A stretch of 64,000 nt of DNA, taken from positions 124,001 to 188,000 of the forward strand of contig NZ_LFIO01000381.1 of the NCBI RefSeq assembly GCF_001187535.1, read 5' to 3'. The DNA comes from Rhizobium ecuadorense. Lineage in GTDB: Bacteria > Pseudomonadota > Alphaproteobacteria > Rhizobiales > Rhizobiaceae. The notes under the pieces are model-generated. The model had not been told where the DNA came from. It did not search any database and saw nothing but the letters and a program-made list of their open reading frames with translations. Positions 7,020 to 14,675 of the stretch are shown one piece after another. The stretch's first letter is position 1; the number at the start of each line of letters is the position of its first letter. A program made the translations under genes and the position numbers.

Positions 7020-8351
7020 GTGGCTTTTCAAGCGGATTTTCAGCGGGATGGCATCGGGCTCCGCTCCGGGGGGCTCAAAATACTTCTGGTTGAAGATTCC
7101 CGGATGTTTTCCGCCGTGCTTTGCCATCGGTTCCAGACCGAACTGGGCCTTGCGGTCAAATCCTGCCCCTCGCTAAAGGCGCTTCGCAAAGAACTTGCCG
7201 AGGACGGTCACGGCTACACCATGGCTGTCGTCGATCTCAACCTGCCGGATTCGCCCTATGGCGAAGCGCTCGACTGCACGATCGAGCACGATATCCCGGC
7301 AATCGTCTTCACCGCCACGTTCGATCTCAACACGCGCAACAAGATCATGGAGCGCAATGTCATCGATTACGTGCTGAAGGACAATGAATTCGCGCTCGAC
7401 AATCTGGTCGCCACCGTCCGCCGCGCGATCTCCAACCGCAAGACGCGGGTGTTGGTCGTCGATGATGTCGTCTCCGCGCGCCGGGTGCTGGTCGATCTGC
7501 TGAAGGCGCAGCAATATCTCGTCGTCGAGGCAAGCTCAGGGCTTGAGGCGCTGGCCGCTCTCGAGGCCTACAGCGATATCGAACTGGTCGTCACCGACCA
7601 CCACATGCCCGATATGAGCGGCTATGAACTGACGCGGCGTATCCGCCATCGTTTCGGTTCCGACAGGCTGCGCGTCATCGGCGTTTCCGCCTCCAACGAC
7701 CGCATGCTGTCTGCCAGTTTCCTCAAGGCCGGCGCCAGCGATTTCGTCTACCGGCCTTTCGTCGCCGAGGAGCTGCAATGCCGCATCGCCAACAATGCCG
7801 AGACGCTGGCGCAGATGCGGCAGCTGAGGGCGGCGGCGGCCTGCGACTACCTGACCGGCCTCTACAACCGCCGCTATTTTTACGACAACGGCCCGAAGCT
7901 GGTGAACGAGTGTCTGCGGCTGAAAGTGCCGAGTTCGGTGGCCATTCTCGATATCGATCATTTCAAGCGGCTGAATGACACCTATGGCCACGAGATCGGC
8001 GACAAGGTGCTGAAGGCTGTCGCAAACAGGCTGTTCACGATCTTCGACGGCAGCGACAATCTTCTCTCGCGGCTTGGCGGCGAGGAATTCGCCATCCTTT
8101 TCCCGCAGATGGATTCCCTTGCTGCGACCAAGCTTTGCGACGAAATTCGCTCCGACATTTCCCGGCTGAAAGTCACCGCCGACGACGAGGAACTCGGCGT
8201 CACGATTTCGATCGGCATCGCCGAAATCGAGGGCTACGAAACCTTCGAAAACTATCTCAACGCCGCCGACCAGTTCCTCTATATGGCTAAGCACAGGGGC
8301 CGCAACCAGGTCTATTCCGACGCCAGGATGACGGAAGAAGCGGCGCAATAA
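7020..8351 (+). CDS. PleD-like diguanylate cyclase (REC-REC-GGDEF)
   Basis: About 443 residues: REC1 (ILLVEDSRMF, acceptor Asp in AVVDLNLPD, Lys in VLKDN), REC2 (VLVVDDVVSARR, acceptor in VVTDHHMPD, with RPF in place of KPF), then a GGDEF domain (DYLTGLYNRRYF, active-site RLGGEEFAIL, GVTISIGIAE). The signature GGEEF predicts active synthesis of cyclic di-GMP; no RxxD inhibitory site is visible before it. The architecture is that of Caulobacter PleD. The GTG at 7020 is preferred over upstream ATGs because a GGGAGA ribosome site precedes it and its N-terminus aligns with the paralogue just upstream. The two genes probably act in one signalling branch. Confidence 0.88.
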   Translation: MAFQADFQRDGIGLRSGGLKILLVEDSRMFSAVLCHRFQTELGLAVKSCPSLKALRKELAEDGHGYTMAVVDLNLPDSPYGEALDCTIEHDIPAIVFTATFDLNTRNKIMERNVIDYVLKDNEFALDNLVATVRRAISNRKTRVLVVDDVVSARRVLVDLLKAQQYLVVEASSGLEALAALEAYSDIELVVTDHHMPDMSGYELTRRIRHRFGSDRLRVIGVSASNDRMLSASFLKAGASDFVYRPFVAEELQCRIANNAETLAQMRQLRAAAACDYLTGLYNRRYFYDNGPKLVNECLRLKVPSSVAILDIDHFKRLNDTYGHEIGDKVLKAVANRLFTIFDGSDNLLSRLGGEEFAILFPQMDSLAATKLCDEIRSDISRLKVTADDEELGVTISIGIAEIEGYETFENYLNAADQFLYMAKHRGRNQVYSDARMTEEAAQ

Positions 8352-8406
8352 GGTATTCAGGCGAGGCGCCCCCCTTTCATGTCAGGCGGCGCGCTCTTTC
8401 AAACTC

Positions 8407-9441
8407 TCAGGCCGCGACCGCCTGCTGGCGCGCGGTCGCCATGGTCATCTTGCGCTCAGCGCGCTCCTGCTGCGGCGAGCGATGGTAGAGTTCGCGATAA
8501 CACTTGGAGAAATGCGAGGCCGAGACGAAGCCGCAGGCGACCGCGACCTCGACAACGGGCATCGAGGACTGCACCAGAAGATGGCGGGCACGGTCGAGGC
8601 GGATTTCCAAATAGTAGCGGGCCGGCGAGCGGCCCATCTCCTGGCGGAACAGCCGCTCGATCTGGCGGCGCGAGAGGCCGGCACCGTCGGCGATCTCGAT
8701 CAGCGACAGCGGCTCGGCCAGATTGCCTTCCATCAGTTCGATGATCGACAGCACCTTGGCGTTCTGCACGCCGAGACGGGCGCGAAGCGGCAGGCGCTGG
8801 CGGTCGTGCGGGTTGCGCACGCGGTCGGTCAGGTGCTGTTCGCAGATGCGGTTGACGAGGCTTTCGCCGAAATCCTCGCCGACGAGGTTCAGCATCATGT
8901 CGAGCGAGGCGGTGCCGCCGGCGCAGGTATAGAGATTGCCGTCGATCTCATAGAGATCGGCATAGACTTCCGCCTGCGGAAAGGCTTCCGAAAAGCCCGG
9001 CAGGTTTTCCCAGTGGATGGCGCAGCGCTTGCCGTTCAAAAGCCCTGCCTGGGCCAGCACATGCGCGCCCGTACAGAGGCTGCCGACGGCGACGCCGCGA
9101 TTGTAGCATTCGCGCAGCCAGGCATTGACCGACTTGTTGTTGAATTGCTCGACATCGATGCCGGAACAGACGAGCACCATGCCCGGCCGGTTTTCGCCGC
9201 CGAGATGGCGGCGCTCCTCGGCGAGCGAGGAATTCGCCTCGACGCCGATGCCGCAGGAGGAATAGACCTTCTCCCCGTCGAGGGAGGCGAGCCGCCAGCT
9301 ATAGGCCTGATAGCCGAGCATGCGATTGGCGATGCGCAAAGTGTCCACGGCCGCCGAAAAGGGCAGCATGGTGAATTGCGGTACCATAAAGAAGACCAGC
9401 GAACGCTTCTTGATCTGCATCCTGTTCATAGCGAAATCCAT
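8407..9441 (-). CDS. GlxA-type AraC regulator with DJ-1/PfpI-like sensor domain
   Basis: A 344-residue regulator. The N-terminal half is a class I glutamine amidotransferase-like (DJ-1/PfpI) domain with VGSLCTGAHVLAQAGLL around the conserved Cys. The C-terminal quarter is a double AraC HTH (EIADGAGLSRRQIERLFRQEMGRSP and VACGFVSASHFSKCYRELYH). Rhizobial and pseudomonad relatives control catabolism of glycine betaine, carnitine or similar amines; the ligand here is unknown. The first ATG (9441) is used, but in-frame ATGs at 9429 and 9420 are equally possible since no clear ribosome site decides. No obvious catabolic target is adjacent. Confidence 0.85.
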   Translation of the reverse strand: MDFAMNRMQIKKRSLVFFMVPQFTMLPFSAAVDTLRIANRMLGYQAYSWRLASLDGEKVYSSCGIGVEANSSLAEERRHLGGENRPGMVLVCSGIDVEQFNNKSVNAWLRECYNRGVAVGSLCTGAHVLAQAGLLNGKRCAIHWENLPGFSEAFPQAEVYADLYEIDGNLYTCAGGTASLDMMLNLVGEDFGESLVNRICEQHLTDRVRNPHDRQRLPLRARLGVQNAKVLSIIELMEGNLAEPLSLIEIADGAGLSRRQIERLFRQEMGRSPARYYLEIRLDRARHLLVQSSMPVVEVAVACGFVSASHFSKCYRELYHRSPQQERAERKMTMATARQQAVAA

Positions 9442-9840
9442 GCTCGAGGAACGATGACATATTCGTTGCGCGGAATGCGTCGCGCCGATGTCCTGAAAGC
9501 GACACTGACATGGAAAAATGCGGCCGGGAAGAGCAAATATGCGACATTGACCGCGTTTTGACCGGTTAAACCGCTGGAATAGGGACGGGCCGGATGCGGG
9601 TTGCGTTATAGAGGACTGAAATTCAAGTCTGAAGACGGCTGAGGAACGAATGGGCGCGCACGAAAAAGGCGGCGTTGCGTGATGCTGACGCCGCCCTCAT
9701 CTTGGGAGGCGGATGCCGTTGAAACTTCCTCTAGACACTGACGTTGCATGAACCACGCCAAGATGATGCAATGCCACTGAAGAATTTTAGTCGCAGTTTT
9801 CACAGTGGCTCGTCGCATTTAATCTAAAGGGCAGAATTGA
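9442..9840. other. Intergenic region upstream of the helicase gene
   Basis: I see no convincing gene in these 399 bp. The region holds the left copy of the 46-bp direct repeat (9664-9709). It also has two short dyads before the helicase start: TTGCAT (9744-9749) with ATGCAA (9766-9771), and GCCACTG (9773-9779) with CAGTGGC (9803-9809). These may be the helicase promoter or operator region. Confidence 0.4.
9664..9709 (-). repeat. Left copy of a 46-bp imperfect direct repeat, terminator-like on the minus strand
   Basis: It matches 12668-12713 at 40 of 46 positions with no gap. The core is a hairpin with arms GGCGGCG (9668-9674) and CGCCGCC (9689-9695). Read on the minus strand the hairpin is followed by a run of T, so it looks like an intrinsic terminator. 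Unlike the right copy, no minus-strand gene ends at it; the helicase gene lies on its other side. Confidence 0.7.
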
Positions 9841-12633
9841 ATGAAGGACCTCGCTTTTCAGGGCACCTGGCGAGCTTATCAGCAGAAGATACTTGATGAT
9901 CTGACAAATCTCATGAGCGATGATGGTTTGCATATCGTCGCAGCGCCCGGCTCAGGCAAAACGATTTTGGGCCTTGAAGTGATGCGCAGGCTTGGTGAGG
10001 CGACCTTGATCTTGGCCCCGAGCAAGACCATCAGGGATCAATGGTCGCAGCGGCTACGCATGATGTTCCTGCCCGCCAATGCTGGTGAACCGGACTGGAT
10101 TTCTCATGATGTAAGAGCGCCTCGCACTATCACGATTATCACCTATCAGGCTCTGCATGCGGCGTTCTCGGGTCATACGGCCGAGGAAGAAATTATAGAC
10201 AGTGAAGAGGAGGGCAGCGACGGCGTGCAATCCGTCGAAACGGGCAAGCAGGAGACGGAGAGGGCGAGAAAGAAAATCATCGCGAAGCTGCGCGAAGAGA
10301 AGGTTCGCACCCTTGTGCTCGATGAAGCGCACCACCTTAGAAACGAGTGGTGGAAAGCGCTGACGATGCTCAAGGAAGCATTGGGCAAGCCCACGGTCGT
10401 AGCGCTAACCGCTACACCGCCCTATGATGTGGATCCCCTGGAGTGGGACCGTTATCAGGCGCTTTGCGGGCCGATCGACGGTGAAATTTCCGTGCCGGAA
10501 CTTGTGCTGCAAGGCGATCTTTGCCCGCATCAGGACTATGTCCACTTCAGCCTGCCGAGCGAGTTGGAAGCACAGAAGCTGGCAGAGTTTCGCGCGCAGA
10601 TCGGAGACTTCATCGAGGCGCTGCTCAAAAGTGCAGAATTCAAGCAGGCAATTCTGCACCATCCATGGATTACCCAGCCGCTCGAGAATGTGGAGCATAT
10701 ACTGGATGATGCACGCTTTTTCTCCAGCATGCTGGTCTTCCTGAATGCGCAATATGTCGACTTGCCGCAATCGACTCTCGACATTCTCGGCGTCAAGGCG
10801 CGCGAAATACCGGATCTGACGCTTGAATGGATAGAGGTGTTGCTGAACGGCGTCATCTACACCTATCGCAACGATTTCGAAGAAGCGGAACAAGTACTCC
10901 GCCTCCAAGAAGGCAAGCTGAGGGACATCAGGGGAGTCGAGCACGGCAGAGTGCGGCTAACGGATGCGCGGTCGGTTCAGAAGCTGCTGGTATCGAGTGT
11001 CAGCAAGCTCAACGCGATCGTCGATATCACCCGGCTCGAAAGCGCGTCGATGCGTGACGAACTCCGTATGGTTATCCTTTCCGACTACATCAGGAAGGAT
11101 GCGTTGCCCACCGGCCCCGCGGACCTTCCGCCCATCGAGAGGATGGGTGTCGTGCCGATCTTCGAGACGCTGCGGCGGTCCGGACTTGATCTCAAGCTCG
11201 GAATTCTGACCGGGAGTCTCATTCTCATTCCGGCGGAATCAAAAGTAATTCTTGATGAGATCGCAGGCCATCTTGGCATCGGTAGGGAACATATCCGTTA
11301 CCAACAAACGGCATTCGATGCCGGCTTTCTAGCCGTTGAAATCAGCGGTGCCCTGAGCCGCAATAGCGTTCATATGATCACCGAATTGTTCAATCGCGGT
11401 GGGATCACGGTTTTGGTCGGCACGCAGGCATTGCTGGGTGAAGGATGGGACGCCCCCTCCGTAAACACTTTGATACTGGCAAGTACGGTGGGATCATATG
11501 TACTCTCCAATCAGATGCGAGGCCGCGCCATTCGCACAGACCCCCGAAGCCCTCAGAAGGCCGCGAACGTCTGGCATCTGGCGGTCATCGACCCTGAGAA
11601 GTTTGAGCAGAGAATACCGCTGCGGTTCGGGAGGAAATCGACCGATAGAAAGGCGCCCGATCCATTTGATACCATGACGATAGACTTGGGCAGCGACGTC
11701 GATGCGCTGAAACGCCGATTTTATACCTTCGAGGGTTTGTCCTTCGGTGAGCATCCGTCGATCGAAAGCGGCTTTCACCGGCTGATGCTCGGTGCCGCAA
11801 AATGGAATGCGCGGGGTGTCGACGACATTAACAAAATAATGGAACGCGGCGCTGCAGACCGCGAATCACTGAAAGTCCGATGGCATAGCGCGCTGCGTAG
11901 CTATCGTGCTTTTCCGAGGATGCAGGAAACATTGGAAAGCAACTATGCCCCCAAGGGGCTGCTCAACTGGAATACGACCAAATTTCTTTATGCGCAAAGC
12001 GCCGCCCTTGCGGGAATGATCTTAAGCGCATTCCTGGACACGCTTTCGGATATGGATATTCGTTTACTCGAACAACTGGCGCTGTTCCTATTCGTTATGT
12101 TCTCAATGATGGCTATCTATTGTTTGCCGGGCGCATTCAAAGCCAGTCTGTTGCTGCTGCGGAATGGCTCCCTTGAGGGAAGCATGAAGCAGGTGGGGAA
12201 AACCGTTCTGGAGACGCTGCATAATATGAGCGTCATAAGGAGCGAGCTTGGAAAAATGAGCGTCGAGGCAACGCTCGACCAAAACGGCATCATTTACTGC
12301 CGGCTTGAGGGTGCTACGACGATCGAACGATCTCACTTTCTCGACGCTCTGCGAGAAGTTCTCGTTCCACCACAGAATCCTCGCTACATTCTCGTCAGGT
12401 CGTCAAAATTCTGGCGGCTGAACCGGGTGGATTATCATGCAGTCCCTTCGATCATCGGTCGGAAAAGGGAGGATGCCATGCATTTCGCCCAGCTGTGGGA
12501 TCGCTACGTCGGCCCTTCGGATCTCGTCTACACGCGCAGCGCACAGGGCCGCCTGACGCTACTCCAATTTCGCGCGAAATCGTTTGCTTCGGCATTTACC
12601 AGGAAAACAGATAGAGTCAGCCGTTGGGAGTGA
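9841..12633 (+). CDS. Membrane-anchored SF2 DEAD/DEAH-box helicase of unknown role
   Basis: A 930-residue protein. RecA-like domain 1: Walker A AAPGSGKT (residues 34-41), ILAPSKTIRDQW, Walker B LVLDEAHHL (DEAH at 161-164), motif III ALTATPP (188-194), with an acidic, charged insertion at about 114-145. RecA-like domain 2 runs from roughly 420: GTQALLGEGWDAPS (about 528-541) and the motif VI type QMRGRAIR (about 558-565). Two hydrophobic helices follow (about 717-736 and 742-766), then about 165 residues I cannot assign. The gene stands alone, is visibly less GC-rich than its neighbours, and lies between two 46-bp direct repeats. The N-terminal ATPase layout resembles restriction- and defence-type SF2 helicases; a phage-defence or nucleic-acid-sensing role is inference only. 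Confidence 0.85.
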   Translation: MKDLAFQGTWRAYQQKILDDLTNLMSDDGLHIVAAPGSGKTILGLEVMRRLGEATLILAPSKTIRDQWSQRLRMMFLPANAGEPDWISHDVRAPRTITIITYQALHAAFSGHTAEEEIIDSEEEGSDGVQSVETGKQETERARKKIIAKLREEKVRTLVLDEAHHLRNEWWKALTMLKEALGKPTVVALTATPPYDVDPLEWDRYQALCGPIDGEISVPELVLQGDLCPHQDYVHFSLPSELEAQKLAEFRAQIGDFIEALLKSAEFKQAILHHPWITQPLENVEHILDDARFFSSMLVFLNAQYVDLPQSTLDILGVKAREIPDLTLEWIEVLLNGVIYTYRNDFEEAEQVLRLQEGKLRDIRGVEHGRVRLTDARSVQKLLVSSVSKLNAIVDITRLESASMRDELRMVILSDYIRKDALPTGPADLPPIERMGVVPIFETLRRSGLDLKLGILTGSLILIPAESKVILDEIAGHLGIGREHIRYQQTAFDAGFLAVEISGALSRNSVHMITELFNRGGITVLVGTQALLGEGWDAPSVNTLILASTVGSYVLSNQMRGRAIRTDPRSPQKAANVWHLAVIDPEKFEQRIPLRFGRKSTDRKAPDPFDTMTIDLGSDVDALKRRFYTFEGLSFGEHPSIESGFHRLMLGAAKWNARGVDDINKIMERGAADRESLKVRWHSALRSYRAFPRMQETLESNYAPKGLLNWNTTKFLYAQSAALAGMILSAFLDTLSDMDIRLLEQLALFLFVMFSMMAIYCLPGAFKASLLLLRNGSLEGSMKQVGKTVLETLHNMSVIRSELGKMSVEATLDQNGIIYCRLEGATTIERSHFLDALREVLVPPQNPRYILVRSSKFWRLNRVDYHAVPSIIGRKREDAMHFAQLWDRYVGPSDLVYTRSAQGRLTLLQFRAKSFASAFTRKTDRVSRWE

Positions 12634-12667
12634 AAGCCGGGGCGAATCCTACGCGTTCTGAAGATGG

Positions 12668-12713
12668 AAAAGGCGGCGCCGCTTGATGCAGACGCCGCCG
12701 TCATCTTGAGAGG
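12668..12713 (-). repeat. Right copy of the 46-bp direct repeat; likely terminator of the DUF1127 gene
   Basis: It carries the hairpin GGCGGCG (12672-12678) and CGCCGCC (12693-12699). On the minus strand this is followed by TTTTCC, placed 14 bp after the stop of the DUF1127 gene, the right position for an intrinsic terminator. The sequence is 40/46 identical to 9664-9709. Confidence 0.72.
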
Positions 12714-12726
12714 AATGTCGCATTCA

Positions 12727-12927
12727 TTAAACGGTCCGGTGTTTGTTGTCGTCCGTGCTCGGCCAGCCAATGTCCTTGCGGATGTCGAAGGGCATGGCTT
12801 CGATTTCGCGGGCGGTCCGCCAGCGTGTCCAGGCAAGCACGAGCTTGCGGGCATGATATGCAAGATCGAAGCGGCCTGCGCCGGAGGTGAAGGGCTTGCC
12901 GCCACCGCGATAGGTGAGCGTGGTCAT
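12727..12927 (-). CDS. DUF1127 small basic protein
   Basis: A 66-residue protein with the DUF1127 core near its C-terminus: WTRWRTAREIEAMPFDIRKDIGWPS, the family's R..RE...MP.D...DIG pattern. Small Arg-rich DUF1127 proteins in alphaproteobacteria affect phosphate/carbon metabolism and RNA turnover; this paralogue's role is not known. The ATG at 12927 was chosen because an AAAGGAAC ribosome site lies just upstream; a longer in-frame version to 12963 lacks one. A terminator hairpin follows directly. It lies next to the repeat that marks the right edge of the helicase segment. Confidence 0.85.
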   Translation of the reverse strand: MTTLTYRGGGKPFTSGAGRFDLAYHARKLVLAWTRWRTAREIEAMPFDIRKDIGWPSTDDNKHRTV

Positions 12928-13142
12928 TTTCCGGTTCCTTTCTTTAGGTCGGGGCATGGTCATCGATGGGAGGTTCGTCCATGTCCGTGATCACAATATG
13001 GGCCTCCGGGACCCATCATTCAAACGAATAGAGCTTATGGATAACATCAGAGATATTGAATGATCAGCGTTTGCCCGAGGGGCCGACGCGCTGAACTTTG
13101 CGGGGTTGCAAAATGCCAAATCGAGGCACGGAGAGGCGACTC

Positions 13143-13167
13143 GGAACTAAGTCCGCTCCACCTCGTT
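13143..13167 (+). promoter_or_regulatory. EcfG (general stress sigma factor) promoter
   Basis: GGAAC at 13143-13147 and CGTT at 13164-13167 are separated by exactly 16 bp, matching the alphaproteobacterial EcfG/RpoE2 consensus GGAAC-N16/17-CGTT in full. The -10 element lies 38 bp before the DUF2171 start codon, so transcription would begin about 30 bp before the gene. The three downstream small genes fit a general-stress regulon. Confidence 0.75.
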
Positions 13168-13205
13168 GCCGCTTCGTAGTTGACAATGACGCAAAGGAGG
13201 AAACG

Positions 13206-13439
13206 ATGATTTCCGCAGATCAGATTCGCGAACATATGGAAGTGCTGACGGCCGACGGCACTCATGTCGGGACGGTCGATCATCTCGATGGTCCCACCCG
13301 CATCAAGCTGACGAAAACCGACTCGGAGGACGGCAAGCATCACCTGATCCCGATCGATTGGGTCGATCACGTCGACGCGCATGTTCACCTGTCGAAAAAC
13401 GCCAGGGATGTCCGCAGCCAGTGGGCCACCATCAACTGA
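13206..13439 (+). CDS. DUF2171 family protein
   Basis: A 77-residue protein of the DUF2171/PRC-barrel-like type: IREHMEVLTADGTHVGTVDHLDG, then a basic strand and IPIDWVDHVDAHVHL. The fold is a small beta barrel of unknown function. A strong AAAGGAGG ribosome site at 13193-13200 fixes the ATG at 13206. It is the first gene behind the EcfG-type promoter and is followed by two more small stress-type genes on the same strand. Genes of this family are often part of the general stress response in rhizobia, in line with the promoter. Confidence 0.85.
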   Translation: MISADQIREHMEVLTADGTHVGTVDHLDGPTRIKLTKTDSEDGKHHLIPIDWVDHVDAHVHLSKNARDVRSQWATIN

Positions 13440-13448
13440 CGAGCGGTC

Positions 13449-13470
13449 GGCTGCGGCTTTTGCCGCAGCC
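13449..13470 (+). terminator. Perfect intergenic hairpin after the DUF2171 gene
   Basis: GGCTGCGGC (13449-13457) and GCCGCAGCC (13462-13470) form a 9-bp perfect stem with a TTTT loop, 9 bp after the DUF2171 stop. There is no T-run after it, so it is more likely a partial terminator or mRNA-stabilising stem than a full intrinsic terminator. Confidence 0.5.
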
Positions 13471-13492
13471 TCCTCGCCGCAAGGAAACCCAC

Positions 13493-13702
13493 ATGTCCAG
13501 GCAATTGAAAAAGGGCGACGAAGTGAGCTGGGATACCAGCCAGGGAAAGACCGAGGGCAGGGTGGTCAAGAAGCAGACCAGCCCGACGAAGATCAAAGAT
13601 CACACGGTGAAAGCGTCGCCGGCGGAACCGCAATATATCGTCCAGAGCGACAAATCGGGAAAACGAGCCGCGCACAAGCCAGACGAACTCAGGAAGCTTT
13701 GA
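13493..13702 (+). CDS. DUF2945 / HVA1-type small Tudor-like protein
   Basis: A 69-residue basic protein starting MSRQLKKGDEVSWDTSQGKTEGRVVKK and ending in a Lys/Arg-rich segment. This is the hypervirulence-associated (HVA1) Tudor-like family: a short beta barrel with the conserved GD.V.W....G...G.V pattern. The ATG at 13493 has AAGGAAA upstream; the frame is open further upstream but overlaps the previous gene. Function unknown; the positive charge suggests nucleic-acid contact. It lies between the DUF2171 and DUF3008 genes and probably shares the EcfG promoter. Confidence 0.8.
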   Translation: MSRQLKKGDEVSWDTSQGKTEGRVVKKQTSPTKIKDHTVKASPAEPQYIVQSDKSGKRAAHKPDELRKL

Positions 13703-13734
13703 GAGCGGTTGATGCCAACGAGAAGGAGATCGAT

Positions 13735-13920
13735 ATGCCGGCCAAGTCCAAGGCCCAGCAGAAGGCGGCGGGTGCCGCACTCTCGGCCAAGCGCGGCGAG
13801 ACGCCCAAGAGGGAGCTGAAGGGTGCTTCGAAGCAGATGGAGGAATCCATGAGCGAGAAGCAGCTCGAGGAGTTCGCATCCACCAAAAGAAAGGGTAAAC
13901 CGGAGCACGCCTCCAAATAG
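13735..13920 (+). CDS. DUF3008 family small protein
   Basis: A 61-residue, highly charged protein: MPAKSKAQQKAAGAALSAKR at the start, then a helical Glu/Lys-rich middle and the ending STKRKGKPEHASK. This matches the DUF3008 family, which is annotated only as hypothetical. It looks intrinsically disordered or helical and resembles small stress proteins induced by osmotic or oxidative stress. AAGGAG lies 8 bp before the ATG. It is the third gene of the stress-type cluster, 32 bp after the Tudor-like gene. Confidence 0.8.
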   Translation: MPAKSKAQQKAAGAALSAKRGETPKRELKGASKQMEESMSEKQLEEFASTKRKGKPEHASK

Positions 13921-13955
13921 GTCGAGACAGCGGTAGCGACGGCGGCGGCGTCCGT

Positions 13956-14675
13956 TCACGTCGTCGTAGAATGCATCGAAAAATTCGCGACCTCGTGCGT
14001 CTCGGCGACGGCGAAAAGAATTGCGCGTGCTGATGCATCCGGATCTTTCGCCATCCAACGCAATTCGAACGTCACCCCGATCCGGCCATCTTCGGTCTGT
14101 CCCAGCGAAACGAACAATGCGCTGCATTCAAGAGATCCCAGCACATCTGACAGGTCGGGAATATCGGCGCTCGAGCCGTAGACGACGAGCGTCGCCTTGC
14201 GTTCGCAGCGCAGCCAGGTGTCCAGGCGTTTCAGCGGCGACAGCACGATGAAGGCAACGACGGTTGCCACTGTCCCTGTGACGATCTGGCCGCCGCCGAA
14301 GCAGAGACCGACCACCGTCATGAACCACAGGGTCGCCGCCGTGGTGACGCCGGTCATCATGTCGCCGCGCCTGAGGATTGCTCCGCCGCCGATGAAGCCG
14401 ACGCCTGTGAGGACGCCGAGGGGAAAGCGCAGCACGTCCATCTGCGTGAAATAACTGAAGGTTTTCCCGTAGGTCGACAGAAGCAGGTTCGCCTGGACCA
14501 TCGCAATGCAGGCGGCAAGCGCCACCAGGATCGTGGTCCTGAAGCCCGCGGCATGGCCGCCGCGCTCGCGGTCGAGGCCGATAAGGCCGCCGGCAATCAC
14601 CGTCAGCATGATGCGGGCGGCGATATCCCACCAGCTAGGCGTCAGCGGCATGACGTCGGTCAGGAGCGAAGGCAT
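13956..14675 (-). CDS. mgtC: MgtC/SapB family membrane protein
   Basis: A 239-residue inner membrane protein. The N-terminal half has four to five hydrophobic helices with the MgtC/SapB signature: GGLIGLDRERGGHAAGFRT, then GVLTGVGFIGGGAILRRG and GVTTAATLWFMTVVGLCFG. The C-terminal 80 residues form a soluble, ACT-like domain. MgtC proteins support growth in low magnesium and in hosts; in Salmonella MgtC acts on the F-type ATPase. Position relative to the stress genes (convergent, with little space) suggests separate transcription. No magnesium leader element was recognised upstream. Confidence 0.88.
   Translation of the reverse strand: MPSLLTDVMPLTPSWWDIAARIMLTVIAGGLIGLDRERGGHAAGFRTTILVALAACIAMVQANLLLSTYGKTFSYFTQMDVLRFPLGVLTGVGFIGGGAILRRGDMMTGVTTAATLWFMTVVGLCFGGGQIVTGTVATVVAFIVLSPLKRLDTWLRCERKATLVVYGSSADIPDLSDVLGSLECSALFVSLGQTEDGRIGVTFELRWMAKDPDASARAILFAVAETHEVANFSMHSTTT

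What the first reader, a model, noticed from the sequence alone, without database searches (positions are those of the whole stretch)
9664..12713. Solitary SF2 helicase gene between 46-bp direct repeats, a candidate mobile or defence insert
The sequence shows a 930-codon gene, visibly less GC-rich than its neighbours, with a direct repeat matching at 40 of 46 positions on each side (9664-9709 and 12668-12713). The right copy is the natural terminator of the DUF1127 gene; the left copy terminates nothing now. This suggests either an insertion that duplicated the terminator or replacement of a second DUF1127 gene between two terminators. Known SF2 helicases with this ATPase layout occur in restriction and phage-defence systems; a defence role here is inference.
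Basis: partly seen in the sequence, partly recalled or inferred. Interest (0 to 1): 0.75.

Follow-up and report, generated by a model that had tools for sequence, protein, structure and literature searches.

The report
One-gene helicase insert in Rhizobium
A single gene for what looks like a membrane-anchored DNA motor protein, possibly a virus-defence gene but not yet tested, sits as an insert beside a small gene in some Rhizobium strains, while related strains without it show a clean empty site.

Summary
The 930-codon SF2 helicase gene (9841-12633) lies between direct repeats 9664-9709 and 12668-12713 (40 of 46 match). Its third-position GC is 0.64, against 0.835 for the left neighbour. Among 148 genus genomes, 9 carry the gene here and a tenth has a 64% relative elsewhere. 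All 9 sites have two repeat copies; 41 of 41 compared sites without the gene have one (exact junction shown in 8 of 8). The repeat is a terminator plus, in the other carriers, the 3' end of the small right-hand gene. So this is a 3.0-kb one-gene insert with target duplication and no integrase. The DUF1127 label is not supported by Pfam.

The protein belongs to a full-length family that I could not match to a described one: XPB/Hef-like motor, helical insertion, hydrophobic helix pair, and a C-terminal domain without Pfam or convincing PDB match. Relatives (33-50% identity) are scattered over several phyla. The gene is under purifying selection and has no fixed partner. In 13 of 30 streptococcal loci (13 of 17 at one site) restriction-modification genes follow it. 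Best reading: a mobile, stand-alone, probably anti-phage, membrane-tethered DNA translocase. The insertion is well supported; defence is inferred.

The parts
9664..9709 (.). Left direct repeat: extra copy of the small gene's terminator (hairpin reads on the minus strand). In the eight other carriers it is longer (64-113 nt) and reaches into the small gene's 3' coding end
9710..12713 (.). The insert as defined against empty sites (3004 bp; equivalently 9664-12667), one repeat copy included
   Evidence: in 8 of 8 helicase-free loci the left flank ends at 9708-9709 and the right flank starts at 12667-12668
9841..12633 (+). Stand-alone SF2 helicase, 930 aa
   Evidence: purifying selection
9943..9963 (+). 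Walker A (APGSGKT, residues 35-41)
10321..10335 (+). DEAHH motif II (residues 161-165)
11512..11535 (+). Motif VI, QMRGRAIR (residues 558-565)
11962..12165 (+). Two long helices (residues 708-735 and 741-775), read as a membrane hairpin. In this protein only the second passes the hydrophobicity threshold
12190..12630 (+). C-terminal domain (residues 784-930), no Pfam family, no convincing PDB fold match
12668..12713 (.). Right direct repeat: terminator directly downstream of the small gene (minus strand)
12727..12927 (-).
8407..9441 (-). Left neighbour: DJ-1/PfpI + AraC-type regulator (GlxA-like by eye); left-flank DNA matches in 148 of 148 genus genomes

Best explanation
A 3.0-kb, one-gene insert that entered at the 3' end of a small gene in an ancestor of part of Rhizobium. 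It duplicated that gene's 3' end and terminator, left the gene intact, and has since been lost or exchanged several times, leaving a clean single-copy site. The gene encodes a stand-alone SF2 motor (XPB/Hef-like, probably a double-stranded DNA translocase) probably tethered to the inner membrane by a helix pair, with motor and C-terminal domain facing the cytoplasm. Its most likely job is defence against phages or other incoming DNA: it meets foreign DNA at the membrane, and ATP-driven translocation either strips or blocks that DNA or triggers the C-terminal domain. Shown: the insertion, the empty sites, intact motifs, purifying selection, a hydrophobic helix region, full-length conservation across phyla, transfer, and restriction-modification neighbours at one streptococcal site. 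Inferred: DNA as substrate, membrane topology, defence function, and every step of the mechanism.
For: Two copies at 9 of 9 occupied sites, one at 41 of 41 compared empty sites, with exact junctions in 8 of 8. Presence is scattered on the flank tree: 8 changes, at least 6 forced by well-supported branches. In G033/G030 the helicase dS is 0.029 against 0.178 for the flank gene, i.e. recent sharing. dN/dS is 0.13-0.18 in 8 of 8 pairs with the window's gene. The motor's best fold matches are XPB, up to Z 18.7, rmsd 3.6, 374 aligned; profile matches are archaeal XPB and Hef. At least one hydrophobic segment in the helix-pair region in 40 of 41 family members, two in 22 of 41. Full-length relatives in several phyla but only 3 of 385 Alphaproteobacteria genomes, own included. 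98.6%-identical genes in two Pseudovibrio at unrelated places. Of 17 Streptococcus loci with the same left neighbour, 13 have restriction-modification genes within four genes downstream, of five distinguishable kinds.
Against: No phage test exists. No nuclease or other effector domain was recognised. The Rhizobium neighbours scanned with Pfam are not defence genes. Elsewhere neighbours are mostly ordinary: no PADLOC family is matched by more than 2 of 131 neighbours from 48 loci, and of ten large ones three match. The other 13 of 30 streptococcal loci matched none of the five restriction-modification reference proteins, and the 13 positive loci share one site, so they are not independent. No PADLOC model fits the family; its PADLOC matches are to the shared motor. 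In the window's own protein only one of the two helices is hydrophobic enough, and similar weak peaks occur in the soluble core of some members; no membrane predictor was run. No integrase or transposase was found, so the route of insertion is unknown.
Confidence: 0.6

Rival explanations
1. The gene is a DNA repair or replication-restart helicase that happens to be accessory, not a defence gene.
For: Motor closest to XPB/Hef; strong purifying selection; mostly ordinary gene neighbours.
Against: Patchiness (10 of 148 genus genomes, 3 of 385 class genomes, own included), scattered presence, occurrence at different sites and the restriction-modification site in streptococci fit a defence gene better. 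NCBIfam repair equivalogs score far below their cut-offs.
Confidence: 0.2
2. A selfish single-gene mobile unit: the helicase itself promotes its own movement, and the duplication is its target-site signature.
For: Same gene at unrelated sites with homology borders at the start and stop codon in Pseudovibrio. A Balneola relative also lies between two 38-nt copies (92%) of a hairpin. Exact duplication in Rhizobium.
Against: No recombinase, transposase or nuclease domain was found. The duplication is long. Of 52 non-Rhizobium loci scanned, only L117 has a clear flanking direct repeat (E 6e-9); L104 (31 nt, 84%) and L139 (44 nt, 73%) are weak.
Confidence: 0.1
3. The gene is the last remnant of a larger integrated island (integrase-bearing, integrating at the small gene's 3' end) whose other genes were deleted. 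This concerns the route of insertion and is compatible with a defence function.
For: The arrangement (intact gene with its terminator on one side, a 3'-end fragment on the far side) is that of integration at a gene's 3' end. The spacer between the helicase stop and the right repeat varies in length.
Against: All 9 occupied sites have single-gene-sized inserts (flank gap 3.05-3.29 kb), and no site among the 50 compared holds a larger one.
Confidence: 0.3
4. Two tandem copies of the small gene existed and the helicase replaced one of them.
For: The left copy includes part of the small gene's coding end (G083, 113 nt).
Against: No helicase-free site compared has two terminators (41 of 41 single). 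No convincing 5' half of the small gene is seen on the left; in G030, G032 and G033 the best alignments run further but only with many gaps.
Confidence: 0.1

Closest known systems
XPB / Hef class of SF2 helicases (XPB-Bax1, TFIIH XPB, archaeal Hef, FANCM)
   Same: Two RecA-like domains; profile and fold matches to the motor
   Different: 930 aa with a large helical insertion, a hydrophobic helix pair and a separate C-terminal domain; no conserved partner gene
Hachiman HamB, type I restriction HsdR, PbeA (PADLOC models)
   Same: SF2 motor with weak partial matches; HamB and HsdR genes occur beside some family members
   Different: Matches cover the motor only; no conserved HamA, HsdM or HsdS partner; no nuclease domain recognised
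Genomic islets integrated at gene 3' ends with target duplication (recalled category, no call)
   Same: Direct repeats containing a gene's 3' end and terminator, precise empty sites
   Different: No integrase, one gene only, target is a small protein gene rather than a tRNA gene (one search finds no tRNA in the window)

Membership tests
SF2 helicase superfamily | Walker A, DEAH, motif III (TATPP), motif V/VI residues | tested here: met
   core residues invariant or nearly invariant in 41 aligned members; ResIII 1.7e-19, Helicase_C 2.9e-7
XPB equivalog | score above NCBIfam cut-off (610 bits) | tested here: not met
   39.8 bits
Hachiman (HamAB) | HamB full-length match with a HamA partner | tested here: not met
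   1 of 41 members matches one HamB model, E 1.9e-4; no conserved partner gene
Type I/III restriction enzyme | nuclease domain plus methylase/specificity genes in the operon | tested here: not met
   no nuclease domain in Pfam scans; no conserved partner
Any known anti-phage defence system | protects against phage | not testable with these tools
   no experiment
Integrase-driven genomic island | repeat pair flanking the element and empty sites with one copy | tested here: met
   9 of 9 and 41 of 41
Integrase-driven genomic island | site-specific recombinase encoded by the element | tested here: not met
   the helicase is the only long ORF between the repeats
DUF1127 (right-hand small gene) | match to PF06568 | tested here: not met
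   (one search scored 150 of 196 candidates)

The most novel reading that the evidence does not exclude
A previously undescribed one-gene immune family in several bacterial phyla: a membrane-tethered XPB-like DNA translocase that meets invading DNA at the inner membrane and spreads as a bare coding sequence, with homology borders at start and stop codon, between gene-exchange sites.
Probability: 0.35. Interest if true: 0.8.

Novelty: new variant of a known kind. Interest (0 to 1): 0.55.

Why it matters
If the defence reading is right, this is a stand-alone immune protein conserved end to end across distant phyla and probably anchored in the membrane, which would point to DNA entry as the stage attacked. 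No PADLOC model fits it and its C-terminal domain is unclassified. The Rhizobium site also offers natural matched pairs, with and without the gene at the same place, that make the function directly testable.

Tried and rejected
Larger cargo at the same Rhizobium site: none among the 50 sites compared. tRNA as target: none in the window. Rfam family in 8000-14500: none at the gathering threshold. Viral carriers: in viral contigs 11 stretches matched a pattern and none encodes a relative (narrow patterns). Two short 'Bacteriophage sp.' records from faeces match over 98% of the query, origin unknown, not pursued. Four plasmid records match, three over at least 80%. C-terminal domain: best Pfam E 0.013 in 1 of 41 members, no PDB match at E <= 0.001, best VIA Z 3.0; I do not claim a new fold. 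Conserved partner gene: the largest neighbour cluster touches 10 of 58 loci, at varying positions. Which repeat copy is the original: not resolved; in 8 of 9 carriers the left stretch is closest to another carrier's left stretch, in G083 to its own right copy (the aligned stretch runs into the insert, which favours left with left).

Papers: the listings showed no title on this family. These are word searches of open papers and several listings were capped, so absence from print is not claimed beyond them. I saw search passages of three papers. PMC11514479: four passages on 'helicase', about Gabija and Hachiman. PMC12458937: 'transmembrane', 'solitary', 'stand-alone', 'standalone', 'XPB', no occurrence. 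PMC12839542: 'transmembrane', 'PbeA', 'solitary', 'XPB', no occurrence. PMC13092281 (DefensePredictor) was seen as a listing only. None was read whole. The comparison with integration at gene 3' ends and the name 'mitis group' are from general knowledge, no call.

Rows dropped: one apparent left repeat in G018 (51% to its partner) was set aside as spurious; one search shows one copy there. Of 165 neighbour proteins listed (48 loci) went into. G111's short 36% match and the six short matches in other Rhizobiaceae genera were not counted as family members. Of 148 genus genomes, 50 were compared at the site in detail and 98 were not.
Full report
What is there. ORF 9841-12633 (+) encodes 930 aa. 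It lies between direct repeats 9664-9709 and 12668-12713, 40 of 46 identical. Flank-to-flank alignment beats 100 shuffles in this genome and in the eight other carriers. The hairpin pattern occurs only at these two places in the genome. Both copies fold as terminator-like hairpins on the minus strand, although the consensus scan lists neither. The gene's GC3 is 0.641 against 0.835 for the left neighbour.

The insertion. In 148 genomes of the genus, own included, the protein is found full length in 10, plus one short spurious match. Nine are 85-100% identical and sit at this place; the tenth (G042, 64%) has the gene on contig C99 and the left flank on C77. In helicase-free loci the left flank ends at window 9708-9709 and the right flank starts at 12667-12668 (8 of 8 loci). 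In the 50 sites compared, 9 of 9 carriers have two repeat copies and a flank gap of 3050-3287 nt, and 41 of 41 non-carriers have one copy and a gap of 46-161 nt. The other 98 of 148 genomes were not compared at this level. In the eight other carriers the repeat is longer: 64-66 nt in G033, G030 and G032, 78-82 nt in G112, G068, G084 and G080, and 113 nt at 92% in G083; it reaches into the 3' coding end of the small right-hand gene. So the event duplicated the small gene's 3' end and terminator and left the gene whole. No integrase lies between the repeats.

History in Rhizobium. Carriers are scattered on a tree of the left flank: 8 changes, at least 6 forced by well-supported branches, no clustering beyond shuffled labels (200 of 500 as low). 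The helicase tree has well-supported groups (G000, G112, G068), (G033, G030, G032) and (G084, G080) that agree in part with the flank tree. G033/G030 share a helicase with dS 0.029 while the flank gene has 0.178, and G084/G080 0.041 against 0.108. Pairs between groups have 1.23-2.57 times the flank's dS, pairs within groups 0.16-1.08 times. In 8 of 9 carriers the left stretch is closest to another carrier's left stretch. I read this as one old insertion, several losses (recombination between the repeats would give the empty site seen) and some transfer between species. Repeated independent insertion is not excluded. dN/dS of 0.13-0.18 in 8 of 8 pairs shows that the protein is kept for its function.

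The protein. Pfam finds ResIII and Helicase_C. No PADLOC or NCBIfam model fits the whole; matches are to the shared motor. In a pattern scan of genome contigs 139 stretches matched, 111 encode relatives and 80 were kept, most of them over nearly the full length. They come from Rhizobium, Pseudovibrio, Phycisphaerae/Sedimentisphaerales, Balneola, Bacteroidota, Elusimicrobia, Clostridia, Streptococcus, Grimontia/Enterovibrio, Saccharibacteria and others. 3 of 385 Alphaproteobacteria genomes, own included, have it at E <= 1e-40, and of 394 Rhizobiaceae genomes sampled only the window's own has a full-length match. The 41-member alignment keeps the motor motifs. The model (mean pLDDT 82, pTM 0.79) shows an XPB-like motor (best Z 18.7, rmsd 3.6, 374 aligned) with a mostly helical stretch at 241-407, a pair of long helices at 708-775, and a C-terminal domain (784-930, own model pLDDT 88.7) without Pfam family or convincing PDB match. 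By a Kyte-Doolittle scan 40 of 41 members have at least one hydrophobic segment in the helix-pair region and 22 of 41 have two; the window's own protein has one, and one member (L133) has none. No membrane predictor was available, and weaker peaks also occur in the soluble core, so membrane anchoring is likely but not shown. A hairpin would put both soluble parts on the same side, taken as the cytoplasm (inference).

Neighbours and movement. No neighbour family is shared by more than 10 of 58 loci. Among 131 of 165 near neighbours, from 48 loci, no PADLOC family is matched by more than 2 and Pfam hits are mostly ordinary. Of ten large neighbours three are defence-like: HsdR in L149, a mad3-like ATPase in L131 and HamB in L171. 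In 17 of 30 streptococcal loci the left neighbour is the same gene of about 206 aa. After the helicase there come type I HsdR of one kind (5 loci), HsdR of another kind (4), an Eco57I-like type IIG enzyme (1), fused EcoRI-type and C5 methylases (1), HsdM (2), the core metE (2), or unclassified genes (2). Representatives were identified with PADLOC and Pfam, the rest by BLAST to them. That is 13 of 17 with restriction-modification genes. The other 13 of 30 streptococcal loci matched none of these references. The 17 loci share one site, so the five kinds are a better count of events than 13. In many pairs of these loci homology stops exactly at the helicase stop codon. In Pseudovibrio sp. Ad37 and P. 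ascidiaceicola the genes are 98.6% identical at DNA level from 3 nt before the start codon to the last coding codon, while the flanks held share no match. P. ascidiaceicola has, at the Ad37 site, a different gene (676 aa with Sel1-like repeats, my reading of the sequence) between flanks 95-98% identical.

Mechanism. Shown: intact motor motifs, selection, presence at several sites, empty sites, restriction-modification company at one streptococcal site. Likely: membrane anchoring. Inferred: that it acts on double-stranded DNA, at the membrane, against incoming phage or plasmid DNA, by translocation alone or by signalling through the C-terminal domain. I give about 0.95 to the insertion account and about 0.6 to the defence account.

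Observation right; insertion right; replacement of a second small gene unlikely; defence plausible and somewhat better supported than before but unproven; 'DUF1127' not supported by Pfam.

Noticed in passing
L103:7983-10747 and L108:7983-10747 (Pseudovibrio): Helicase genes 98.6% identical with homology borders almost exactly at start and stop codon and unrelated flanks; how a bare coding sequence moves is unexplained.
   Followed up: partly
L117, 73-36 nt before the start and 28-65 nt after the end of the helicase (Balneola sp. EhC07): A distant relative also sits between two direct copies (38 nt, 92%) of a terminator-like hairpin, as in Rhizobium.
   Followed up: partly
L145-L174, right of the helicase stop codon: A streptococcal exchange site next to a gene of about 206 aa, with five kinds of restriction-modification genes after the helicase in 13 of 17 loci.
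   Followed up: partly
L198 (G919:C31:245500-250200): At the place of the Pseudovibrio Ad37 helicase another species has a 676-aa protein with Sel1-like repeats on the other strand: a gene-for-gene swap.
   Followed up: partly
window 12727-12927 (-): The small target gene looks like DUF1127 by eye but is missed by PF06568, although six members above the cut-off are found elsewhere in the genome.
   Followed up: yes
L006 (G083), 113-nt repeats: In this carrier the two copies are 92% identical over 113 nt and share about 10 nt of chromosomal flank, suggesting gene conversion or a younger duplication.
   Followed up: partly
G033 and G030 (L004, L005): Helicase dS 0.029 against flank dS 0.178: recent transfer of the helicase between two species, strongest over the coding sequence.
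   Followed up: partly
phage records MT836806.1 (4967-7666) and MT838455.1 (3398-6037): Two short unannotated 'Bacteriophage sp.' records from human faeces encode near-full-length relatives; phage origin not checked.
   Followed up: no
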